From Periplaneta americana (taxonomy: Eukaryota > Arthropoda > Insecta > Blattodea > Blattidae): a stretch of DNA of 64,000 bases. The notes under the pieces were generated by a model. The model was not told the DNA's origin and ran no database searches. It saw nothing but the letters and a program-made list of their open reading frames with translations. Below, one piece after another: positions 26,866 through 64,000 of this stretch. Location: the NCBI RefSeq assembly GCF_040183065.1, contig NC_091126.1, positions 139,537,204-139,601,203 on the forward strand. Reading direction: 5' to 3'. Positions within the stretch are counted from its first letter, which is position 1; each line of letters begins with the position of its first letter. A program made the position numbers and the translations under genes.

Positions 26866-26867
26866 TA

Positions 26868-27939
26868 CAGGGACATCATTTTATTTTTACTAACATTTTT
26901 AATATTAACCTGTCTATACCTTTAGAGAAACGGAAACACCGCTTGCTCCCCCCTCCAAGATTGGAGTTCGATGATACTGGCGTAAAACACAAATCACTCT
27001 ACTAGGTATAGGATGGAAGGAAAGTAGTTCATCCATTTACGTAAACTAGGAAATATCGCGATTTTGAGTTTGATAATTTTTATTGGGTTTTTTTTTAATA
27101 AAAGTACAGTACTATATTAAGAATAAGTGTTTCTACTCACGAAGTGAGTTATCCATGCGAACGTATTCATTATGCAGTGTATACTATCTACAGCACATTA
27201 GCGTACAATATAGAGAAAGAAGTTAAATTGAAAAATAATCATAATATGAATATTTAAACACAATTTTGAAAATGGTGGCCGTTCATTTCGATACAGGCTT
27301 CAGTTCTTTTGTGCATATTATCGCACTATAGAATATTGCATCTAATTCCAATTGCCAGTTTCGTCCTTCGTACTAGTAACTCATGTTGAAATAATTCTGT
27401 ACCTACTCTACGTACTGTGAATTCAATCTTCACTTCTGCCCGACCCGAAAATATAAAATTACTCAGACATGCTATCTACTGTCCGTCCAAGTGGTTATGC
27501 CGCAGGATTGTAGAAAGGGAGGAAATCTCGTGACAGTTAATTACTTAACGAGGCCCTTTTATTTAAGTTAAATTAAACAGCTGTATAATATTACGTAAAC
27601 GTCCAATTCCTAAGAGAAATTAATGTTTTCAGAAAAGAGCTAAGACAGCCCAGCTTTTACAGATGGGCGAGCAGAAGCAGGTGGGGGAAATCGGGATGCG
27701 ACGTAGGCAAACGGACAGTACCTGTGCGAAAATATGATTCAATATTGAAAGCTCTTTCGTCACTGGAAAACGTGAACATATTTCTGGAACGTACTATACT
27801 CAGTAACTCAGTACTGCTTACTATCTGCGGTCTTGGTTTGTGTGGAGTTGGAACTTCCTTAGTAGAAAGGGTGGGAGTGAAGTACATTCAAAAACTCAGG
27901 TACAATAAAAATTGAAGTAAAAATAAAATGATGTCCTTG
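26868..27939. mobile_element. TA-flanked non-autonomous transposon, copy 1 (1.07 kb)
   Basis: TIRs start CAGGGACATCATTTTATTTT; the right end has one change (AAGGACATC..). Both ends are flanked by TA (26866-26867, 27940-27941). It is near-identical in the same orientation to 48626-49703, with a few substitutions and small indels. No transposase is visible; the longest frames (60-76 residues) look fortuitous. TA target sites fit the Tc1/mariner/pogo superfamily. Confidence 0.9.
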
Positions 27940-27946
27940 TACAATT

Positions 27947-34011: not shown

Positions 34012-35643
34012 GTAAGAAAATGAACTGTTATGGCAGATTAGGTTATTTTAGGCTTTTATTATGTCTTTGGTTATTATCTGTGACAGGTCAAGTTAGTTTA
34101 GTATTTTACTGACAGGTTAGGTTAGTAAAGGATTTTACTGACAGGTTAGATTAGGTTAGATAAGGTTAGTTTAGAATTTTAGTGACAGGTTAGGTTAGTT
34201 TAGGTTTTTATGATGCGCTACGTAATTATTTGTGACAGGTTAGGTTAGGTTAGTTTAGGATTTTAGTGACAGGTTAGCCTAGGTTAGTTTAGAATTTTAT
34301 GATGCGTTTCATAATTATCTGTGACAGGTTAGGTTAGGTTAGGGTTTTGGTGAAAGGTTGGGTTAGGATTTTAGTGACAGGTTAGGTTAGTTTAGGCTTT
34401 TATTATGCGTTTCGTAATTATCTGTAACAGGTTAAGTTAGACTAGTTTAGACTTTTATGATGCGTTGCATAATTATCTGTGACAGGTTAGGTTACGTTAG
34501 GTTAGGTTAGGTTAGTTTAGGGTTTTGGTGATAGGTTGGGTTAGCATTTTAGTGACAGGTTAGGTTAGTTTAGACTTTTATGATGCGTTTCATAATTATC
34601 TGTGACAGGTTAAGTTAGGTTAGTTTAGGGTTTTGGTGATAGGTTAGGTTAGTTTAGTTTGGGATTTTAATGACAGATTAGGTTAGTTTAGACTTTTATT
34701 ATGCGTTACGTAATTATCTGTGACAGGTTAGGTGAGGTTAGTTCAGGGTTTTAGTGACAGGTTAGGTTAGGATTTTAGTGCCATGTTAGGTTAGTTTGGA
34801 CTTTTATTATGCGTTGCGTAATTATCTGTGATATATTAGGTTAGGTTAGTTTACGGTTTTAGTGACAGGCTAGGTTAGGTTAGTTTGGACTTTTATTATG
34901 CGTTGCGTAATTATCTGTGATATATTAGGTTAGGTTAGTTTACGGTTTTAGTGACAGGCTAGGTTAGGTTAGTTTAGAATTTTAGTGACAGGTTAGGTTA
35001 GGTAGGGAAAATTAGGTTAGGTTATGTTGGGGTATTATTATGGTTTCATATACCAAACTGGCAGATTTGGTTAGGATAGTTCAGGGTTTTGTTATGTCTT
35101 GTGTACGCAAATCTGTGGCACATTAGATGGTGTTAGTTTAGGCTTTTAGTGACAGGTTAGGTTAGGTTAATTTAGACATTGTGTTTTGCATATACGAAAC
35201 TGTTTTGTTATGCCTTGTGTAGGCAAATCTGTGACAGGTTAGGTTGGGTTAGTTTTGGATTTTAGTGAGAGGTTAGGTTAGGTTAGTTTAGGCTTTTATT
35301 GTGGTTTGCATATATGAAACTGTGACAGATTAGGTTAGGATAGGTTAGGCCTTTTCATGCCTTGTGTAGGCAAATCTGTGGCAGGTTAGGTTGGGTTAGT
35401 TTAGGATTTTAGTGAGAAGTTAGGTTAGGTTAGTTTAGGCTTTTTTATGCTTTGCATATACGAAACTGTGCAAGGTCAGGTTGGGATAGTTTAGGTTTTT
35501 ATTATGCCTTGTATAGGCGTATCTGCGACAGGTTAGGTTAGGTTAGTTTAGGCTTTTATTATGGTTTGCATATACGAAACTGTGACATGTTAGGTTAGTT
35601 TTTTGTAGGCTTTTGTTTGCTATAAGTTTTATTTTTCTTTCAG
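34012..35643 (+). other. Predicted intron of the Merlin transposase
   Basis: GTAAGA donor and a polypyrimidine-CAG acceptor. Splicing preserves frame across a conserved junction (LREVCR/DILDRR). Almost the whole intron is the TTAGG-rich minisatellite. Confidence 0.8.
34080..35610 (+). repeat. TTAGG-rich minisatellite inside the Merlin intron
   Basis: About 1.5 kb built from GACAGGTTAGGTTAGGTTAG followed by TTTAGG.TTTTAGTGACAGG blocks. Higher-order units of about 100-130 bp are marked first by TTATTATGCGTTGCGTAATT (34.1-34.95 kb), later by GCATATACGAAACTGTGACA or TGTAGGCAAATCTGTG (35.1-35.6 kb). The core GGTTA repeats equal the insect telomere unit TTAGG in the same strand sense throughout. 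Confidence 0.9.
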
Positions 35644-44712: not shown

Positions 44713-45550
44713 ATGGAATGGAGATTTGACAGAACGAAGTTGATTTCTAATGTGGAGAAACGTGAACCCCCCAGCACTAGAACTGCGACCTCGCCCGCCA
44801 AAATTATCATTATGGGTGTTTCAATCCCACGCCCGACCGAGACTCGAACACGCTGAAGGGGTGAATAAATGAGCAACCGCGAGATTGTAACATCGATCTT
44901 TCAAGATATTTCCAATATTTCTATTATTACTTATCCTTGTGAACCTCGAATCGCGCTAACTTTTGTCATAATTTCCTCCACCAGTCGCTTCTGCAAGTGA
45001 CGGTTCCCCCTGTTCTAGTCACTCTATTGCTACAGGCATAATACCATAATTAGCCCGTTATTCTAGGCTTTCTCACAAACCGCCGAGAAACGATCGTTGC
45101 AAAACGGCAGAACTGACAAAGCTGAAGAAGATAGTAAAATAAGCCACTTCCATGTTAAATGAATAAAAACATACAATTATACCAAGACTTGCAAAACAAT
45201 AAATTTTAAGACAAAACAAGGTTCACGTGAATCCATATTTTATGAAATGCATACAAAATTAACAAGAAATAAAGTATGCGGCTGGATTAAAAAATTTAAT
45301 TGCATGAACATCCTCAGTCCAGTAATGAGTTATTACAGAATGTATCCACTATGATGTGAAAGTCTGTTGAAGTGTAGAGGTGTTTACTGTCTTTTAAACC
45401 TGATGTCAACAAAACAAATTTTATTCATTCGTAATCGATGTCTGTGATTGAAACAATATCGCGTCATTCTGGTAGGCCTACTACTTTAAAATCTCACATT
45501 TGGCAGGGTACGTGTACTGCATCACTAAAATTATACTGTATAATTGTGAG
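44713..45550. other. Unassigned interval
   Basis: No gene seen. A minus-strand box B-like GTTCGAGTCTCGG at about 44850 hints at another tRNA-derived fragment but lacks a box A. Confidence 0.35.
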
Positions 45551-47935
45551 CGCTATAAGATTAAGATCATTAAAATACGATCGCTGTAAAATTAAGATCA
45601 TTAAAAATTACGATCGCTGTAAGATTAAGATCATTAAAAACTACGATCGCTGTAAGATTAAAATCATTAAAACTATGATCACTGTAAAATTAAGATCATT
45701 AAAAACTACGATCGCTGTAAGATTAAGATCATTAAAAACTACGATCGCTGTAAGATTAAAATCATTGAAACTATGATCGCTGTAAGATTAAGATCATTAA
45801 AAACTACGATCGCTGTAAGATTAAGATCATTGAAACTATGATCGCAGTAAGATTAAGATCATTAAAAACTATGATCGCTGTAAGATTAAAATCATTAAAA
45901 CTATGATCGCTGTAAAATTAAGGTCATCAAAAACTACGATCGCTCTAAGATTAAGATCATTAAAAACTACGATCGCTGTAAGATTAAAATCATTAAAACT
46001 ATGATCGCTGTAAGATTAAGATCATTAAAAACTACGATCGCTGTAAGATTAAAATCATTAAATCCATGATCACTGTAAGATTACGATCATTAAGAACTAA
46101 GATCGCTATAAGATTAAGATCACTAAATACTATTATCGCTGTAAGAATAAGATAATTAAAAATTATGATTGATGTAAGATTAAGATCATTAAAAACTATG
46201 ATCGATATAAGATTAAGACCACTAAAAATATGATCGCTGTAAGATTAAGATCATTAAAACCTGTGATCGCTTTAAGATTAAGATCATTAAAACTATGATC
46301 GCTGTAAGATTACGATCATTAGAAACTATGGTCGCTGTAAGATTAAGATAACTAAAAACTATGATCGCAATTAGATTAAGATCATTAAAAACTATGATCG
46401 CTTTAAGATTAAGATCTTTAAAAACTATGATCGCAATAAGATTAAGATTACTAAAGACTATTATCGCAGTAAGATTAAGATCATTAAAAACTATGATTGC
46501 TGTAAGATGAAGAACATTAAAAACTATGATCGCTATAAGATTAAGACCACTAAAACTATGATCGCTGTAAGATTAAGATAATTAAAACAGTGATCGCTGT
46601 AAGATTAAGATCATTAAAAACTATGATTGCTGTAAGATTAAGATCATTAAATCTATGGTCACTGTAAGATTAAGATCATTAAAAACTATGAGCGTCCTAA
46701 GATTAAGATCATTAAAAACTATGATCGCTATAAGATTAAAACCATTAACAACTATCATCGCTGTATGATTAAGATCATTAAATCTATGGTCGCTGTAAGA
46801 TTAAGATCATTAAAAACTACGATCGCTGTAAGATTAAAATCATTAAAACTATGATTGCTGTAAGATTAAGATCATTAAAAACTATGACAGTTGTAACATT
46901 AAGATCGTTGAAAACTATAATAGATGTAACATTAAGATCATAAAATCTATAGTCGCTGTAAGATTAAGATCATTAAAAACTATAATCTGTCTAAGATTAA
47001 AATCATTAAAAGCTATGATCGCTGTATTATTAAAATCACTAAAAATATGATCGCTGTAAGATTAAGATCATTAAAAACTATGAGGGCTCTAAGATTAAGA
47101 CCATTACAAACTACGATCGCTGTAAGATTAAAATAATTAAAACAATGATTGCTGTAAGATTAAGATCATTAAAAACTATGATCGCTGTAAGATTAAGATC
47201 ATTAAATCTATGATCGCTGTAAAATTAAGATCATTCAAAACTATGATCGCTGTAAGACTAAGACCATTAAAAACTATGATCGCTGTAAGATTAAGATCAT
47301 TAAATCTATGATCGCTGTAAGATTAAGATCATTAGAACTATGATCACTGTAAGATTAAGATTTTTAAAAACTATGATCGCTGTAAGATTGAGATCATTAA
47401 AAACTATGATCGCTGTAAAATTAAGATCATTAAAAATTATGATCGCAATAAGATTAAGATCACTAAAAATATGATCGCTGTAAGATTAAGATAATTAAAA
47501 ACTATGATCGCTGTAAGATTAAGATCACTAGAAACTATGATCGCTGTAGGATTAAGATCATTAAGAACTATGATCGCTATAAGATTAAGATCACTAAAAA
47601 TCTATTTCCTCTGTAAGATTAAGATCATTAAAAACTGTGATCGCTGTAAGATTGAGATGATTAAAAGCTATGATCGCTGTAAGATTAAGATCGTTAAAAA
47701 CTATGATCGCTGTAAGATTAAGGTCACTAAAACTACGATCGCTATAAGATTAAGATCATTAAAACTATGATCGCTGTAAGATTAAGATCATTAAAAACTA
47801 TGATCGCTGTAAGATTAAGGTCACTAAAAACTACGATCGCTGTAAGAATATGATCACTGAATTTGTTATCGCTGTAATATTAAAATCATTAAAAACTATG
47901 ATCGCTGTAAGATAAAGAGCATTATTCAAAATTAA
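45551..47935 (+). repeat. 33-bp satellite, ~72 tandem units (2.4 kb)
   Basis: Monomer consensus ATGATCGCTGTAAGATTAAG followed by ATCATTAAAAACT, 33 bp. Early units mostly read TACGATCGC; later ones read TATGATCGC, with scattered single-base changes and a few indels. Each unit contains an inverted pair ATGATC..GATCAT, so a hairpin can form in every monomer. Because 33 is a multiple of three, frames of 88-112 codons (45438-45776, 47504-47770) encode an 11-residue repeat (IAVRLRSLKTM). These are by-products of the period, not credible proteins. Confidence 0.95.
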
Positions 47936-48625
47936 TGAATTTGATATTACTCGCATAAGAGTCGCTGTCAGTTTGTGGAATGATGCCTTCTATATCTGTA
48001 AGTTCACTGTTCCTTTTCAAATTTTTCCCTCGTTTTTGTTTTATTACCGAAGGACCAACTGACATATCTATCGATTTTCAGATTGTTGTTCTATTAAATA
48101 ACTTAAATAGTGATACAGCACCTATAAAATCTCCTATATGTAAGTAGGCCTATATATCTTTATTTCGAAATGTAAGAATTCAGTCTCCTATGTACGGCTG
48201 CCAAAGGATGATTAAATGGGTTTTTCCCTCCTCCTGAAAGATCTTATGTTTTGCACATAGGAGTTATTGCAGAAACAACGATGATATAATTGATCAGCGT
48301 AACAAAGCCAAGAATAGAAGCTGAGCTGTTCGATGTTGGTAAGCGCGCTACGCTTAGATTTACTTCTTCAAATATTATTAGACGAAAGTCAAAGAAGCGA
48401 TTTTGGCGAAATTACAACTTAAAAGGTTCATTTTCGCATAACAGTGTCGCTATTATAATGGCAGTGATATACTTAAGCAGTTTGAGAAGTTTTATACTTG
48501 GATGCAGTTATTTTCAAACTATTTATTTGATATTCAAATTTACAAGTAGGTATTGGTTCGTTGTTCAAAGTTACTTATGTGATATCTTCTGTTGTGGAAT
48601 AATTTTATTGCATTTATTAAAAATA
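47936..48625. other. Unassigned; frame at 48290-48769 is not convincing
   Basis: A 159-residue plus-strand frame starts at 48290 but runs into the TIR element at 48626, so its C-terminal third is transposon sequence. Its N-terminal part has no recognisable domain. I do not call a gene. Confidence 0.4.
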
Positions 48626-49703
48626 CAGGGACATCATTTTATTTTTACTAACATTTTTAATATTAACCTGTCTACACCTTTAGAGAACCGGAAACACCGC
48701 TTGCTCCCCCCTCCAAGACTGGAGTTCGACGATTCTGGCGTAAAACACAAATCACTCTGCTGGGTATAGGAAGGAAGAAAAGTAGTTCATCCATTTACGT
48801 AAACTAGGAAATATCGCGATTTTGAGTTTGATAATTTTCATTAGGTTTTTCTTTAATCAAAGTACAGTACTGTATTAAGAATAAGTGTTTTTACTCACGA
48901 AGTGAGTTATCCATGCGAACGTATTCATTATGCAGTGTATATTATACTGTCTTCAGCACATTAGCGTACAATATAGAGAAAGAAGTTAAATTGAAAAATA
49001 ATCATAATATGAATATTTAAACACAATTTTGAAAATGGTGGCCGTTCATTTCGATACAGGCTTCAGTTCTTTTGTGCATATTATCGCACTATAGACTAAT
49101 GCATCTAATTCCAATTGTCAGTTCCGTCCTTCGTACTAGTAACTCATGTTGAAATAATTCTGTACCTACTCTATGTACTGTAAATTCAATCTTCACTTCT
49201 GCCCGATCCGAAAATATAAAATTACTCAGACATGCTATCTACTGTCCGTCCAAGTGGTTATGCCGCAGGATTGTAGAAAGGGAGGAAATCACGTGACAGT
49301 TAATTACTTAACGAGGCCCTTTTATTTAAGTTAAATTAAACAGCTGTATAATATTACGTAAACGTCCAATTCCTAAGAGAAATTAATGTTTTCAGAAAAG
49401 AGCTAAGACAGCCCAGCTTTTACAGATGGGCGAGCAGAAGCAGGTGGGGGAAATCGGGATGCGACGTAGGCAAACGGACAGTACCTGTGCGAAAATATGA
49501 TTCAATATTGAAAGCTCTTTCGTCACTGGAAAACGCGAACATATTTCTGGAACGTACTATACTCAGTAACTCAGTACTGCTTACTATCTGCGGTCTTGGT
49601 TCTGTGTGGAGTTGGAACTTCCTTAGTAGAAGGGGTGGGAGTGAAGTACATTCAAAAACTCAGGTACAATAAAAATTGAAGTAAAAATAAAATTATGTCC
49701 CTG
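48626..49703. mobile_element. TA-flanked non-autonomous transposon, copy 2 (1.08 kb)
   Basis: Same TIR (CAGGGACATCATTTTATTTT) and same orientation as copy 1 at 26868-27939, flanked by TA (48624-48625, 49704-49705). The copies differ by scattered substitutions and small indels such as ATACTATC versus ATATTATACTGTC. No transposase. Confidence 0.92.
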
Positions 49704-49705
49704 TA

Positions 49706-50090
49706 TAACGAAAAACGTAAGACATTATTACAATTCGATTTTATTTAAAGTTCATTTTGTTCACCCTTTTCCTTTAATCACTGCTACCTGTACAGCAATA
49801 TACACTGCAGCCAGAAGCACGCAGAGTAATCGAAGATCCCCTGTCTGAAGTAACAGACTTGTTATATTAAACAACTCGTTAAGCTGCAGTAACATACGAA
49901 CGTTCGGAGAAAAACCAAGGGAAGGAATGTAATAAGTGAGTAAGCTACCGAAGCAGTGGTTGTTGTAACACAACTCGACACTCGACTAAGCAAGCAGCGT
50001 TGCAACATCTACTAGAGTACGACACTTAAAAGTCCCACTTACGATCTATGTTTAATTTCATTAATAACATTTGTCATTCTTGTTAGCCTG

Positions 50091-56380: not shown

Positions 56381-57056
56381 GTTCACTCCAGTTAGAATGA
56401 TTGAAATATGAGTTGGGTTTTTGGATCGGGTGAGGCTAGGCCTACTATACGAGCATGACCTTGATTTAGAGTAGCGGATGAGCACCCCGAGGTGCCTGGC
56501 GGCCATTTTGGACGTAGGCCAGTATTTCCAGTTAGTAGAAGCCGTTCCAAGGTGGTTGAAGCAAGACGACGGGCTGTGTACGAAAATGATTTTACTCCGT
56601 AAGATTTCCATGTGCCGCCGCCCACATACCTTGCGTCACATGACTAGGCATGCTTCAACTACGGTAGAACGGCACACAGTGTGCAATTTACCCAAACTAG
56701 GTGTACAAAAATCAAATTTCGACTTGTTTAGTTAGGCATAGATGAAGATGAATTCATGTTCTTTAACATTTAGAGAATGTTGTGAGGAATATATTTCACT
56801 GTTTTATCAGCGGCAAGCTACTTTTAGAAAGGTATGAACAATGAGTCCTCTCTGAAATTTCTCGATCGTGTTCAGTCGTAGACAGAGAGGCTTACTATAT
56901 TGGTCAAAAAGAGCCAATTGTTTGTGATTTATTGAGTTGTGAGATATGGAATCTGTACAAATAGGTACGTTCTTACTAACGTAATTTCAATTTCAAGTTT
57001 GTAAAATATTTTTCTTTGTACGGTACAGTTTAAATATTACAATTTTTTATTTTAGT
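56381..57056. other. Unassigned interval
   Basis: No gene seen; short overlapping frames around 56320-56735 on both strands are shadows of a GC-richer patch. Confidence 0.35.
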
Positions 57057-57296
57057 AAGTTATTTTACGACACTTTATCAACATCTTAGGTTATTTAGCA
57101 TCTGAATGAGATGAAGGTGATAATGTCGGGGAAATAAGTCCGGGGTCCAGCACCGAAAGTTACCCAGCATTTGCTCATATTGGATTGAGGGAAAACCCCG
57201 GAAAAAACCTCAACCAGGTAACTTTCCACGACCGGGAATCGAACCCGGGCCACCTGGTTTCGCCGCCAGACGCGCTAACCGTTACTCCACATATGT
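57057..57296 (-). repeat. tRNA-derived SINE, family B (minus strand)
   Basis: Minus strand: GGAGTAACGGTTAGCGCGTC, box B CCGGGTTCGATTCCCGG (very close to consensus), CCTGGTTGAGGTTTTTTCCG, CTTTCGGTGCTGGACCCCGG, tail TAAATAACCTAAGATGTTGA. Better preserved than 42345-42578. Confidence 0.9.
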
Positions 57297-57691
57297 GGAC
57301 ATAAATATTACAATTTAAAAAAATATGTTTTTAAAATTTTCCAAATATAATGTGAGTTTTAGTATAGCCGGTCACTTCCAGTTACAAAAATTCTTTTCCG
57401 ATCTAATGCAGCATCATTAAAGTCTTGAATTCTTCTTTCAAAATTTGCGCGTTTTTGCTTATTTACCAGTAATTAATTTTTTTCTATGGTGGGGCATACC
57501 ATAACGGGCGGCAACTATTTCATGTTTAGCTTAAAAGGAGAAAAGAATCATGGAATGAGGAAGTTTTTAAATACTGTGCGAGTGTTTTAGGCCTGGAAAA
57601 TTATTCGCACATCGAACATCGGGTTAAAAATATATTGGACACATTTTGTCTAACTTTAACAAACGCACCGTGGTTCAGAACGCAAATGTAG

Positions 57692-58175
57692 TAACTGGAA
57701 AAAATAAAAAACTTCTCTGCATTCTAACTGATTGTTATCAAACTTTATACAGGGCTTACAAGTGGTACATATTTTTCTTGTACAACTCTGATTATGTTTT
57801 CACAAGAAAAACTACCCCTTTATAGCTGGTACATTCAGATAGAATTTATTAATAACTTGTCTCCTATCTAACAGATTTTTATGAAATATTGCACGGAAGT
57901 GACTGATAGCATATATTTTATGCGTACAAACTATATTTACAGTTCCATAAGAGGAACTATCCCCTTATAGTGGTACGTTTAAACAAAATTAATAACTTCT
58001 ATCCTATCTACCAGAGTTTTATGAAACTTTATACAGAAGTTACGAGTACAATATATTTTTCGTCTACAAAGTCTGATTATGTTTCTATAAGAAGAACTGT
58101 CACTTTATACTGGTGCATTTAGACAAAATTAATAAACTATCTCCTATATAATATATTTTTATGAAACTTTGTATA
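57692..58175 (+). repeat. Left arm tandem units (~140 bp)
   Basis: Each unit runs AATTAATAACTT.T.TCCTAT, CTAACAGATTTTTATGAAAC, TTTATACAGAAGTTAC, TATATTTTTCGTCTACAAA, CTGATTATGTTTC, AAGAAGAACT, TATAGTGGTACATTTAGACA. Units start near 57692, 57845, 57990 and 58125. Confidence 0.85.
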
Positions 58176-58188
58176 ACAATTAGGCCTA

Positions 58189-58395
58189 CAGGTCTGGAAT
58201 TCGCTACCTGTTAGCATCAGGGACTGTCGAAATAAAATTGAATTCAAACGCAAATTTACTAGGCACTTGGTCAGTAATTGATTTCTTGTAAATAGTTTCC
58301 TTAATCTATCACAAAATATTTCAATATACAGTAATTTCATCACTATACAATTTTGTTATTCTGCGTTTAATTTGTAATTCAGTAAATAAAAAATA
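58189..58395 (+). pseudogene. LINE 3' scrap inserted in the left arm
   Basis: Reads WNSLPVSIRDCRNKIEFKRK then FTRHLVSN and a stop: the closing residues of a CR1/Jockey-type ORF2 (..LWNSLPxxIRxCxSxxxFKRxL..). It is followed by an AT-rich tail with TTTAATTTGTAATTCAGTAA. Confidence 0.65.
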
Positions 58396-58827
58396 TTCTT
58401 TGTTTTTCTATGGTCGTCAAGGTTTTCTTCACAAGAAATCTGATTAGTGATTCTAGTGAAGTTTTTCATACTGAATTCAGATATGTAGTCAGAATTTTTC
58501 CATCAGGCACAGTTTTTTTGTGACAGCTACTTTTTAAAATTGGATTTTAGCGTTTTCTTTGACCTGTCATAGGAACCGTTACCTCATATGTAGCGATTTT
58601 ATCCAAGCTGTATTTAAGGAAATGATTTGTAATATTATGCTGAAGCACCATAAAACAATCCTGTGCAGATTCATTAATGTTTGGACATGCTCAGACCTGT
58701 TCATCTGGCATTGTGATGTGTCAGTATCGAGCTGGCCGTGAGTTTGTTCAGTAGTGAAATAGTTCCTTCCATTCTTTTCGGAATAAGTATTGTGTATGTA
58801 GTGTTTTAGTGCTTAGTATTGTTCATC

Positions 58828-60486
58828 ATGCGAAGAAAGTGTGTAAATCATGTAGACAGTTTCTGCTATATTTGTGGTGAGCTGACCTTCAAGACTCAGA
58901 GGCGACATTTGACCCCACTTGTAAAGAAGTGTTATCAACTTTACTTTGGCTGTCAGGCTGGTGATTTTGATAAGAGCTGGGCCCCAAATACATGTTGTGT
59001 TTCGTGTGTTAGATTGCTGACTGGATGGAAAAAGGGTACACATCGTATGCCAGTTGCAATTCCTATGATTTGGAGGGAACCGAAGGATCATTTAAGTGAT
59101 TGTTATTTCTGTTTGACAAATATTACAGGAATCACATCTAAAATAAGACATTCAGTTAAGTATCCTAATTTGAAATCTGCAATAAGACCTGTTCCCTGTA
59201 CCAATATATGCCGATACGACCTTAGGTAATAACTCTGATTATGACCTAACTGAAACTGAAGATGCTTCAGATGAAAATAAAAATGATCCTACATTTGAAG
59301 CCAATACCTGTTCATCAGAACCATAATTTCCCAATCACAAAGATCTTAATGACCTGATTCGGGATTTAAATCTGTCTAAACAGCAAGCTGAAGGTTTAGC
59401 TTCCAGACTCAAAGGGTGGAATCTACTCCAAAAAGACGTAAGAATATGTAGTTATCGTGGCCGCCATAGTGATTTCAAGGACTGCTTCTCTGAAGAAAAT
59501 GGTATTGTGTTCTGTAATGATATTTGTTCAGTTATGGAAACTCTTGGACTTCAACACCGGCCAGATGAGTGGCGACTATTCATAGATTCGTCTAAAGTTA
59601 ATTTGAAGGCTGTGCTGCTACATATTGGCAATGAACTTCCATCAATACCTGTACCGCATGCCGCTGATATGAAAGAGACATATCAAAATATGAAAGTAAT
59701 TCTAGAGAAAATACAATATAGAAAATATGAATGGTATATATGTGGCGATTTAAAGGTCATTGCTTTATTGCTTGGTTTGCAACATGGGTTCACCAAATTT
59801 TGCTGTTTTTTGTGCCTCTGGGACAGCAGAGATAGGAAGACTCACTATGTTACAAAATCATGGCCTAAACGTGAATCTCATATCCCTGGCCAGAAAAATG
59901 TGTCATATGTCCCTTTAGTGAATCCTGAAAAAATATTGTTACCTCCATTGGATATTAAGTTAGGAGTAATGAAAAATTTTGTCAAAGCTATGGATAAACA
60001 GTCTGATGGATTCTTGTACTTGAAATCGAAATTCCCAAAGTCAGTGATGCTAAACTGAAAGAAGGAATTTTTATAGGGCCACAAATCCGGTCATGAATGG
60101 GTGATGATAATTTCGAAGGACTGTTAAATCCACTGGAGAAAGCAGCCTGGCAGTCTTTCAAAAGTTTATGTTTCAATTTTCTTGGAAACCATAAAGCAGA
60201 AAACTATCGTGACATAGTGACTGATCTTCTGCATTCTTATAAAGCTATGGGATGCAACATGTCTTTAAAAATTCACTTCTTGGACTCTCACTTGGACTTA
60301 TTCCCCGAAAATCTTGGAGCTGTCAGCGATGAGCACGGTGACCGTTTTCATCAGCAAATTTCTACTATGGAAAAGAGGTACCAAGGCAAGTGGAGTTCCA
60401 ATATGCTGGCTGACTACTGTTGGACCAAGAAGAGACACGTTCCAGATGCAAAATATGCCCGAAAATCACTATCTACCACTTGCTAG
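58828..60486 (+). pseudogene. Cys-rich putative transposase of unclassified element
   Basis: No introns. The N-terminal part (58828-59229) reads MRRKCVNHVDSFCYICGELT, NTCCVSCVRLLTGW, PKDHLSDCYFCLTNI: three Cys-pair motifs, likely zinc-binding. A frameshift near 59210-59225 leads into an acidic linker (DYDLTETEDASDENKNDP). A stop lies at about 59324, then LNDLIRDLNLSKQQAEGLAS. The 183-residue core (59507-60058) has WRLFIDSSKVNLKAVLLHIG, WYICGDLKVIALLLGLQHG, TKFCCFLCLWDSRDRKTHY. A frameshift near 60038 and a stop at 60094 precede NFLGNHKAENYRDIV, LDSHLDLFPENLGAVSDEHG and DRFHQQISTMEKRYQGKW. I recall near-identical unnamed proteins, often multicopy, in many arthropods. Asp in LFIDSSK and ICGDLK and the acidic SDEHGDRFH are candidate RNase H-fold catalytic residues; this is inference. 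Confidence 0.75.
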
Positions 60487-60734
60487 GTAAGTCAGAATGA
60501 GTAATTATAATGTTGAGTTAGATGGCTAGTTACAGATTTTTTTAGAATATTATAAAAATTCAAATGAATATCACAAAAAACTCCTGCCCGATGGGGAAAA
60601 ACTGAAATTATATTTGAATTCAGCACGAAACATTCTTCTAGAAAATGTTATTTTACTTCTTGTGAAAGAAAAAAAGTTCATTTTTGTCGACTACATAATT
60701 ATCTAGCTTTAATTAATCAGGTAATCTTTTCGTA

Positions 60735-60925
60735 CTTTGATTCTTATTGTAATTGTAATTTTAAATTTAATACTAATTGTAATTTTATTTGTAATTGTAA
60801 TTCTAAACTTAATACTAATTGTAATTTTATTCTTCATATTATAGTTGGAATCTCCTGGTAGAGGGGTAGAGAAGGCCTGACGGCCTTATCTCTACCAGGT
60901 TAAATAAATAAATACTAGGCCTACT
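60735..60925 (+). repeat. LINE 3'-UTR scrap inserted in the right arm
   Basis: TAATACTAATTGTAATTTTA occurs twice, then CTCCTGGTAGAGGGGTAGAG, AAGGCCTGACGGCCTTATCT, CTACCAGGTTAAATAAATAA. The nested hairpins (CTGGTAGAG/CTCTACCAG and AAGGCC/GGCCTT) parallel the LINE 3' end at 18071-18086. Confidence 0.75.
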
Positions 60926-60949
60926 ACTAATATTACTATAAGTATCATA

Positions 60950-61185
60950 CAGATGTAATCAGAGTTTATACACAAAAAAAATGTTCTACCTGTAACTTCC
61001 GAACAATGTTAGGTAGGAGAGAAGTTATTAATTTTGACTAAAACCGCCCCCTACATAGAGGTAGTTTCTCGTACACGAACGTAATAAGAATTCGTACACA
61101 AAAAATATGTGTTAGCTATACGGTCTGTACAAAATTTCGTAACAATCCGTTAGAATTCAGAGAAGTTATTAATTTAGTCCACTTA
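60950..61185 (-). repeat. Right arm tandem units (inverted)
   Basis: About one and a half units of the 57692-58175 repeat on the opposite strand: complement of ATTAATAACTTCTCTGAATT, CTAACGGATTGTTACG, TTTTGTACAG, then TTTTTTGTGTACGAATTCTT and the next unit from AAAATTAATAACTTCTCTCC. Confidence 0.85.
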
Positions 61186-62125
61186 GATTAGCGATTTTGC
61201 ACACTGTGCGGCGTGTATATCTAGCAACTTCGATGTACTAAAGCGCTGAATTATTTTGCCAAACGAAATATCTCGTCAAGATCTCTCGATTTAAAAGGGA
61301 CATATTCACGTAAAACTTACGGCCGTGTCTTAGACGGAGCCACCGATTTTATTTTATAGAAATTACATTTTTTGTAATCACAAGTGTACTCTCTTTCAAT
61401 TTAATCTGCACAAACACCAAGGGAATTCACTATTCAATTAGAGGTTCTTTGATTATTCAACATACCTCACGAGAGGGGCCTTTGTCTAGTATTGGTCGAG
61501 GGAATACACTTAAAAGCAAACCCCATTCTGGGCATGGGACACCATTTATAACCATCCCTTCAGTGATCTGTCTCCTCCGAAATTTGTTTGGGCTTGTGTG
61601 GAATGTTCCTCAGATCTGTGAAAATAGCGTCCCAGACGGAGTGAATAACTACAGAGCTTCTCCCATTTGTTTTCCAAATGGAGAAGGATCAATGTTATTC
61701 AATCCGAATACCATTAATAGATTACACCAAAGTTATCTAATTTTTGATTGGTAGAAAAATCATACAGAATATAATATTCATTCGTAGCAAATTTATGTTA
61801 CATGATTTTTCATTCGCTAAAATTCGTGTTATTTGGTAAGATTCCTATTAATATTTAAACTACTTTTTCTCTACTTTCATCTACAAATCATACATTTTTA
61901 CTTCCATTAAGAGCAAAAATAATCTTTCAAAATGAATGCACTTACGTCCCTTCCATTTTCAACTCCTAATCCATTTGCGGAACTTTAAAGAAAATGGTCA
62001 TTTAACAATTTTTCAAAGGAATATAAGAATTTTCAGGAGCTAAGACATAATTTTAGGTTGCATAAGTATTTATTTCCTTACTGTTAAATACTTTATGAAA
62101 TAATTTATTTTTATTTTTCATAAAT
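61186..62125. other. Unassigned interval
   Basis: The 101-residue plus frame at 61449-61754 has no recognisable domain. No tRNA or repeat boundary seen. Confidence 0.4.
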
Positions 62126-62875
62126 AGGGTGATTCAAAATCTCTGCGACAAATTCTGAGGGTGATCGATCTAGCAATAAGGAACCCTTTTTGTTAAACAA
62201 CCTATGTCTTTTGACGCGTCGTTTCGAAGTTACCGTTGAAAATGTTTTTGCGCGGGCGTATGTCAATGTATGCGAATGTATGCACCCCTGTTTGTTTGTC
62301 GAGATGTTCGTAAGAGACGAGAAGGGTTGTTGTTTGTTTACGTTTGATGTTCAATATCTTTTCCTTTCAGTTCAGTCTAATCATCAATTGAGAATTAATG
62401 TCTACACTTTTCCCGAGTTAGCCGACATGGTAATGTGTTATGGGGAGGCTCGCGGAAACGGAAGAAGAGCTCTCCACATGTACCAACAACAGTTTCAAAA
62501 CAGAAATCACCCTCATTACACAATGTTTGCTCGACTTTATCAGCCCCTTCGAGACGATGGGTCTCTTCATCACCGGCTCATTGGTGGAAGACCGCGCAGA
62601 CATCCATTCTCAATTGATGATTACATTGAACTGAAAGGAAAAGGTATTGAACATTAAACGTAAACAAACAACAACAACACTTCTCGTTTCTTACAAACAT
62701 CTCAACAAACAAACAGGGGCGCACACATTCGCATACATTGACGTACGCCCACGCAAAAACATTTTTAGCGGCAACTTCGAAACACGTCAAAAGACATTGG
62801 TTGTTTAACAAAAAGGTTTCCTTATTGTTAGATCTATCACCCCTCAGAGTTTGTCGCAAAGGTTTTGAATCACTC
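62126..62875. mobile_element. Fold-back MITE with ~270-bp TIRs and HTH remnant
   Basis: Left arm 62126-62395 begins AGGGTGATTCAAAATCTCTG, CGACAAA; right arm 62602-62875 is its inverted copy (AGAGTGATTCAAAACCTTTG on the complement). Between them about 200 bp encodes, on the plus strand, PELADMVMCYGEARGNGRRA, LHMYQQQFQNRNHPHYTMFA, RLYQPLRDDGSLHHRLIGGR. This is a helix-turn-helix domain of the DUF4817 type, found at the N-terminus of mariner-like transposases. The rest of the transposase is missing. Confidence 0.85.
62395..62601 (+). pseudogene. DUF4817-type transposase HTH fragment
   Basis: Open for about 65 codons inside the frame 62190-62657. Its upstream and downstream extensions are arm sequence. 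Key pieces are MCYGEARGNGRRA, the Arg/Gln-rich helix LHMYQQQFQNRN and GGRPRRHP. An autonomous relative would continue into a DDE core; none is present here. Confidence 0.75.
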
Positions 62876-62879
62876 TGTA

Positions 62880-64000
62880 TATGAGTATAAGAGGACACAT
62901 CTCAAAAACAATTAATTGTGTAAGGAGCTATACTTTTAACTGATATTTCCTAATAACTAAGATAATCTTTAACATGTACTATTACGATAGTGTTTGAAGA
63001 AGCAGTTTCCTTCGTTTGATATCAAAACTCAATCTAATTAAAATTCATAATTTCTGTAAAAGTACATGAAATTCTTACATCAATATTTGAGTAGTAATTG
63101 AGTTCTGAAATGCACAGAGAATTTCAGCTTTCTGACATTAATTTATTTTCGAGATATGTGCACTAATATGAAATTTTAAGAATATGTTTCACATAATATG
63201 TATTAGTGAGTAAATATAGAAATCTGCTCCTAACAATTGTCTCACATATTAGTATAATCCTAAATGAATCTTCGTAAGGCTCTAAAATCTATATCAGATT
63301 ATGGCTGCAAATTTTTATACATTTGCAGTTTCAATATTAGCGAATTTTGCACATGCGTTCATGTACAATTCTCCTTAAGTAAATGAATAAGAGTATAAAT
63401 GACAGTTTTCTTATTGTATGAACACACGGAAAGGATTGTGTGTGTTTTTCACATTTTTAATTCAATTAAAATATTTATTAATTGTGAAATAACTGAAAGA
63501 ATTCTTAAAATTCTAACGAGAATATTTTATGCCAATTTCATATCGAAGAGTAAATACGGGTTTTAAATTATTAGAAGAACTGTGTGGACAATAAATAATT
63601 ATCTTAAAACATTTATGTTAAAATGTATTTCTCGGATTTTCAATCCAATGTACAGAATATTCTCTCTATAATAATGGGTTAACTTCATGGACGGTAAAAT
63701 GCTTGGGCAGAAAATAATTATTGTATTCTGAATCCAATTGTGACGTATGTACCATTCAGTATTGCGTTTATCTCGGAGATTGTAGCAAAGAACATTATTT
63801 CATACGAACAAAAGCATTAATTTCTTTCCAGGAGAGGAATGTTTGAAAGCTGAATGCATAAGGAGGGTAAAGGGTTCTTTGGATATAGACAAATTTATTG
63901 GCAACTTACAAAAGACTAGGTTAACTTCACGAATAGTGCAAAATATATACACAGTATATAAGGAATAAATTAAGCATTGCATAAATACTGGGTCTTCAGT
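62880..64000. other. AT-rich sequence without recognisable features
   Basis: Only very short frames (up to 60 codons at 63800-63982, minus). No inverted repeats, SINE heads or tandem arrays noticed. Confidence 0.45.

What the first reader, a model, noticed from the sequence alone, without database searches (positions are those of the whole stretch)
57692..61185. Poorly classified transposon: Cys-rich gene between inverted arrays of ~145-bp tandem units
The 58.8-60.5 kb gene belongs to a family I recall as an unnamed, often multicopy arthropod gene. Here it sits between long inverted repeats whose outer parts are tandem ~145-bp arrays in opposite orientation, and the inner flanks (58420-58540 vs 60545-60705) are also inverted copies. 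This is the architecture of a DNA transposon with complex TIRs and supports reading the gene as a transposase. Candidate acidic residues (LFIDSSK, ICGDLK, SDEHGDRFH) could form an RNase H-like active site.
Basis: partly seen in the sequence, partly recalled or inferred. Interest (0 to 1): 0.82.

Follow-up and report, generated by a model that had tools for sequence, protein, structure and literature searches.

The report
Decayed Chapaev3 transposon in nested repeats
The gene is a broken copy of a cut-and-paste jumping gene that looks like the known Chapaev3 kind, and the striking inverted arrays around it belong to an older, different repeat into which it came to be nested.

Summary
The gene is a transposase-type gene, but the "complex TIRs" are not its own. 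In 20 of 20 close copies (~95%), homology to the window stops at ~58411 and ~60693, giving a ~2,289-bp element (58408-60696) with CACTRG..CYAGTG ends in other copies. The 140-bp arrays belong to a separate fold-back repeat: 26 of 39 other scored loci have both arms 24-83 bp apart. A retroposon lies between the arms; the transposon lies in the retroposon. Target duplications are 3 bp in 14 of 28 copies (shuffle mean 4.6, 0 of 5000 as high). Eight of 29 have TWA on both sides, all as A-TWA..TWA-T. The ~558-aa protein has D, D, C(2)C, LH, H(4)H and E in order, and a Cys-rich N-terminus. This fits published Chapaev3 (PMC4079192). Against: half of those copies lack a duplication, and five junctions read against uninserted repeats gave no clean one. 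The window copy is dead. Ordinary; a new member of a known kind.

The parts
58408..60696 (+). Whole Chapaev3-type element, ~2,289 bp; homology with other copies runs 58411-60693, the outermost 3 nt on each side are the CAC/GTG positions (here CTA and CAT)
   Evidence: 20 of 20 close copies share this stretch (starts 58405-58412, ends 60693-60701)
58408..58523 (+). Left terminal/subterminal inverted repeat (CACTGGTCGACAAGG in other copies)
60571..60696 (-). Right terminal/subterminal inverted repeat (CACTAGTCGACAAA on the minus strand in other copies)
58828..59229 (+). Transposase reading-frame piece 1: Cys-rich N-terminal part
59330..60057 (+). Transposase piece 2: D1 (59585-59587), D2 (59747-59749), C(2)C (59804-59815), LH motif with H read as D in this copy (59951-59953)
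60097..60486 (+). Transposase piece 3: H(4)H (60274-60291), third acidic residue E (60331-60333), C-terminus
58190..60915 (+). Host retroposon-like repeat (TAAA-type tail) interrupted by the element; direct repeat TAGGCCTAC at 58181-58189 and 60916-60924
   Evidence: uninterrupted copy in L022 8047-7627; the direct repeat is read from the sequence
56672..61212 (.). Outer, older repeat that carries the ~140-bp arrays in opposite orientation (not part of the transposon); interrupted by the retroposon and by a SINE-like repeat
   Evidence: matched piecewise in L091 and L092 up to 61212/61210, in L093 up to 60982
57701..58170 (+). ~140-bp tandem array, 3.3 copies (part of the outer repeat)
60954..61185 (-). 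Inverted, shorter part of the same array (part of the outer repeat)
57046..57302 (.). SINE-like repeat nested in the outer repeat, flanked by AAATATTACAATTT (57032-57045, 57303-57316)
   Evidence: homology 57043-57300 in several loci; flanking repeat read from the sequence

Best explanation
The gene is the transposase of a ~2.29-kb cut-and-paste DNA transposon of the Chapaev3 group (CMC/CMCT megafamily), present here as a dead copy. An intact ~558-aa protein would bind the CACTRG terminal repeats, perhaps through its Cys-rich N-terminal part (inferred), cut with a D-D-E active site stabilised by a zinc-binding insert with C(2)C and H(4)H (inferred from motifs), and insert preferentially into A-TWA-T targets leaving a 3-bp duplication (shown for part of the copies). 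The window copy landed in a retroposon, which itself had landed between the inverted arms of an older array-bearing repeat. That nesting made the arrays look like the transposon's terminal repeats.
For: Fixed ends in 20 of 20 close copies; CAC..GTG ends, where readable, also in ten copies of other subfamilies at 51-62% protein identity (identities; ends) and in more of one of them. Three-bp duplication in 14 of 28 copies, shuffle mean 4.6, 0 of 5000 as high; lengths 2, 4, 5, 6 and 8 give no excess. By subfamily: window's own 7 of 19 (mean 2.95, p 0.012), others 7 of 10 (mean 3.2, p 0.016). Identical TWA on both sides in 8 of 29 (p 5e-5), all 8 as A-TWA..TWA-T; left TWA preceded by A in 11 of 11, right TWA followed by T in 11 of 12. 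Eight uninserted copies of L028's target repeat, fetched from a longer list, each have one TTAT where L028 has two. Of alignment rows with a letter: D1 17/17, D2 17/17, C(2)C 14/18 and 18/18, LH 17/17 and 13/18, H(4)H 11/11 and 11/11, E 10/10 (one row in the C(2)C counts is a misaligned frameshift tail). Between subfamilies dN ~0.4 with dS saturated; one within-subfamily pair has dN/dS 1.02. Published Chapaev3 features match (PMC4079192; PMC12730594). Array repeat separate.
Against: Half of the copies with intact CAC..GTG show no 3-bp duplication. In the window's own subfamily TWA/TWA is 2 of 19, against 6 of 10 in the others, and with altered ends included the adjacent 3-mer is only slightly ahead of a neighbouring offset (7 against 3.2 expected, and 6 against 3.2). 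Five junctions compared with uninserted repeats already in hand gave no clean duplication: the window and L013 lack ~12-13 target bases, L022 has no duplication and a missing left terminus, L019 and L025 are ambiguous. L028's duplication is 4 bp. No library matched the protein. Direct homology to a deposited Chapaev3 transposase and the fold were not tested.
Confidence: 0.87

Rival explanations
1. One reading: one transposon whose complex terminal repeats include the inverted 140-bp arrays.
For: Arrays are inverted and flank the gene in this window.
Against: None of the 20 close copies has a match to the arrays in the fetched 10 kb; matches outside the element are dispersed repeats, family fragments in L027, and an uninserted host retroposon in L022. 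In 26 of 39 other scored array loci the arms lie 24-83 bp apart, leaving no room for the gene between them (several of these loci lie close together on one contig). L091, L092 and L093, read in full, have no match to the element. The joined window flanks match one continuous repeat in L022.
Confidence: 0.02
2. A separate, unnamed lineage of the CMC/CMCT group (related to EnSpm/CACTA, Chapaev or Transib) rather than Chapaev3 itself.
For: No match to the curated families searched; CAC..GTG ends and 3-bp duplications also occur in EnSpm (PMC12730594). TWA is rare in the window's subfamily (2 of 19).
Against: A-TWA-T targets in 8 copies, ~2,289 bp, ~558 aa, single frame, C(2)C-LH-H(4)H order and Cys-rich N-terminus match Chapaev3 as published. 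No EnSpm domain (PF02992) found in this genome, but the control also found nothing.
Confidence: 0.1
3. A multicopy host gene family spread by other means, not a transposon.
Against: Fixed ends with inverted repeats, target duplications and uninserted sites; the one within-subfamily pair tested shows no constraint.
Confidence: 0.01

Closest known systems
Chapaev3 (Garfield, Merrow and Conan families; CMC megafamily), PMC4079192
   Same: CAC..GTG ends; 3-bp TWA duplication between A and T; C(2)C, LH and H(4)H motifs; transposase of 556 aa in Garfield_BM against ~558 here; Garfield_BM consensus 2,289 bp as here; single exon in most Chapaev3
   Different: The window's subfamily shows TWA/TWA in only 2 of 19 copies. 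Garfield and Merrow have two exons.
EnSpm/CACTA (CMCT), PMC12730594
   Same: CAC..GTG ends and 3-bp duplication in the families described there; C(2)C and H(3-4)H motifs between second D and E
   Different: No PF02992 match; A-TWA-T targets fit Chapaev3
Transib/RAG1 (CMCT), PMC4411706, PMC12730594
   Same: D-D-E with C(2)C and H(3-4)H, CA..TG type ends
   Different: The TransibSU duplication named in PMC4411706 is 5 bp (CCAGG); here 3 bp. The genome search with the RAG1 model (PF12940) did not complete; hmmscan of 21 members against Pfam gave no RAG1 hit

Membership tests
Chapaev3 | 5'-CAC ... GTG-3' termini | tested here: met
   both exact in 29 of 50 copies examined (one duplicate dropped; others altered at an end or with an end not found); absent from the window's own copy
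Chapaev3 | 3-bp TWA target duplication flanked by A and T | tested here: met
   as a group tendency: 14 of 28 any 3-mer, 8 of 29 TWA, all in A..T context; weak in the window's subfamily (2 of 19) and not seen in the five junctions
Chapaev3 | C(2)C, LH and H(4)H motifs between second D and E | tested here: met
   the H of LH is D in the window copy and F or Y in 4 other rows; order relative to D and E read from the alignment
Chapaev3 | DDE catalytic triad on an RNase H fold | tested here: inconclusive
   three conserved acidic residues; fold prediction switched off
Chapaev3 | N-terminal 'Chapa' complex zinc finger (PMC4411706) | tested here: inconclusive
   C5, C13, C42, C56, C57, C60, H88, C92 and C95 are kept in all rows with a letter there, C16 in 8 of 9; no Chapa model to compare with
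Chapaev3 | Sequence homology to deposited Chapaev3 transposases | not testable with these tools
EnSpm/CACTA | Transposase_21 (PF02992) domain | tested here: not met
   no such hit in 21 alignment members; genome search found none but its control was silent
Transib/RAG1 | 5-bp target duplication | tested here: not met
   5-mers 1 of 28, shuffle mean 0.6

The most novel reading that the evidence does not exclude
The protein belongs to an undescribed CMCT lineage that only shares Chapaev3's target and ends, and the window's subfamily has relaxed target-site and end processing: duplications of varied or no length, terminal CAC/GTG often changed, target bases lost.
Probability: 0.08. Interest if true: 0.4.

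Novelty: new member of a known kind. Interest (0 to 1): 0.18.

Why it matters
It settles an apparent oddity: nested insertions can imitate a transposon with complex terminal repeats. It also gives a likely classification (Chapaev3) for an abundant gene family in this genome that Pfam and NCBIfam do not name, which would help to mask it in annotation.

Tried and rejected
Pfam, NCBIfam and PDB sequence searches of the pieces and of the alignment gave nothing meaningful. The phage collection and viral contigs gave no relative; the single viral-contig hit (L001, 35% over 37 aa) lies among phage-type genes and I take it as chance. Scan of prokaryote contigs: none. Duplication lengths 2, 4, 5, 6 and 8 were tested beside 3 and show no excess. 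EnSpm domain in the genome: none, control silent.

Literature: PMC4079192 abstract, passages and section 3 part 3 read; passages only of PMC12730594, PMC4411706, PMC4455052, PMC4298943 and PMC3630058; all other papers seen only in search listings. PMC3093488 is not held.

Full report
The window lies in a 3.23-Gb genome held under number (91 contigs).

Observation. The gene, the arrays and the inner inverted copies are all in the sequence. The gene is broken. Pieces 58828-59229 and 60097-60486 are in one frame and piece 59330-60057 in another, with stops at 59324-59326 and 60094-60096: two changes of frame and two stops.

Ends. A search with the middle piece listed 151 matches from 10,098 loose candidates, of which 150 were scored, so copy number is a lower bound. 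I fetched 20 of the closest copies with flanks. In 20 of 20 the homology to 54-64 kb of the window begins at 58405-58412 and stops at 60693-60701; the other printed matches (over 150 bases) are a dispersed SINE-like repeat, fragments of another family member in L027 and, in L022, part of an uninserted host retroposon. Aligned ends read CACTGGTCGACAAGG ... TTTTGTCGACTAGTG in most copies. Ten copies of other subfamilies (51-62% protein identity) have left ends CACTAGTCAACA, CACTGTACAACA, CACTGGTCAACA or CACTGGTCGACA in 8 of 10, and matching right ends in 8 of 10. The element is thus ~2.29 kb and the inner flanks are its terminal repeats.

Target site. Fifty copies were examined at the ends in all: 20, 10 pairs, 10 and 10 pairs. 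Twenty-nine had both CAC and GTG exact after removal of one duplicate (L072); the rest had altered ends, an end not found, or were of another subfamily (3 pairs). Among 28 (L028 also dropped there by the duplicate filter) the 3 bases outside CAC and GTG are identical in 14, against 4.6 in shuffles and 0 of 5000 as high; lengths 2, 4, 5, 6 and 8 show no excess. Split by subfamily, the window's own gives 7 of 19 (mean 2.95, p 0.012) and the others 7 of 10 (mean 3.2, p 0.016). Among 29, eight have TWA on both sides, p 5e-5; all eight read A-TWA[element]TWA-T. TWA/TWA is 2 of 19 in the window's subfamily and 6 of 10 in the others, which I cannot explain.

Uninserted sites. Five joined flanks matched repeats already in hand across the junction. 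None gives a clean duplication: the window copy and L013 lack ~12-13 bases of the target, L022 has no duplication and its left terminus is missing, L019 and L025 are ambiguous in AT-rich repeats. A genome search with L028's joined flanks found its target repeat uninserted many times; the eight copies fetched each have one TTAT where the filled site has two, a 4-bp duplication there. For L023 the best uninserted copy is diverged at the junction, but its length agrees with a 3-bp duplication.

Arrays. The array unit searched alone gave 40 scored loci of 2,256 loose candidates. I paired the listed matches by hand: of the 39 loci other than the window, 26 have an opposite-strand arm 24-83 bp away; four of these lie within 140 kb on contig C10 and may be copies of one another. 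No listed pair lies 2-3 kb apart. Locus L091 matches window 56672-57011, 57331-58193 and 60942-61212, and L092 matches 56675-57044, 57302-58193 and 60955-61210, without the retroposon, the SINE-like repeat or the element (L092 has one more array unit at the centre); L093 matches 56675-57044, 57302-58193 and 60919-60982. The window stretches 58193-58407 and 60702-60913 match one continuous repeat in L022 and are flanked by TAGGCCTAC on both sides (58181-58189, 60916-60924). So an array-bearing repeat was hit by a retroposon, and the retroposon by the transposon. A SINE-like repeat (57046-57302, with a 14-bp direct repeat around it) is a further nested insertion.

Protein. Aligned copies keep D259, D313, C332-x2-C335, L380-H381, H489-x4-H494 and E508 (L003 numbering), with the exceptions counted, plus N-terminal cysteines. 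In the window copy all are present except that H381 is D. Between subfamilies dN is ~0.4 with synonymous change saturated; the one within-subfamily pair tested has a ratio of 1.02, as expected for a formerly active gene now decaying. No fold could be predicted.

Comparison. PMC4079192 gives Chapaev3 as: CAC/GTG termini, TWA duplications between A and T, motifs C(2)C, LH and H(4)H, usually one exon, and for silkworm Garfield 2,289 bp and 556 aa. PMC12730594 gives C(2)C and H(3-4)H for the CMCT clade, with CA..TG ends in most cases and 2-5-bp duplications. PMC4411706 states that Chapaev3 carries the zinc-finger Chapa domain. The features I could test fit, with the weak points named above. I therefore file it under Chapaev3 with the reservation that no deposited Chapaev3 sequence could be compared.

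Verdict. An ordinary, decayed DNA transposon of a known group; the arrays are a nesting illusion. I searched the held papers with cockroach-type terms only because the contig pattern suggested such a host to me; no statement is made on whether this family is already in Repbase.

Noticed in passing
56672-61212: Older array-bearing fold-back repeat with ~140-bp units in opposite orientation and CACACAGTGTGCAA-like ends (56669-56710 against 61173-61214); 2,256 loose candidates in the genome search.
   Followed up: partly
L010-L049 (window's subfamily): Terminal CAC/GTG altered in about a third of copies while the adjacent TGGTCGAC is mostly intact, and TWA/TWA duplications in only 2 of 19; end processing may be looser in this subfamily.
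   Followed up: partly
45547-47924: Satellite of a 33-bp unit, ~73 copies.
   Followed up: no
34081-35621: Complex arrays built of TTAGG-like words (AGGTTAGGTTAGG), resembling degenerate insect telomere repeat (recalled).
   Followed up: no
26866-27944 and 48624-49708: Direct repeat of ~1.08 kb, 97% identical, 21 kb apart; could be LTRs or two insertions.
   Followed up: no
62118-62403 and 62598-62884: Inverted pair, 88% identical, close together; another fold-back repeat.
   Followed up: no
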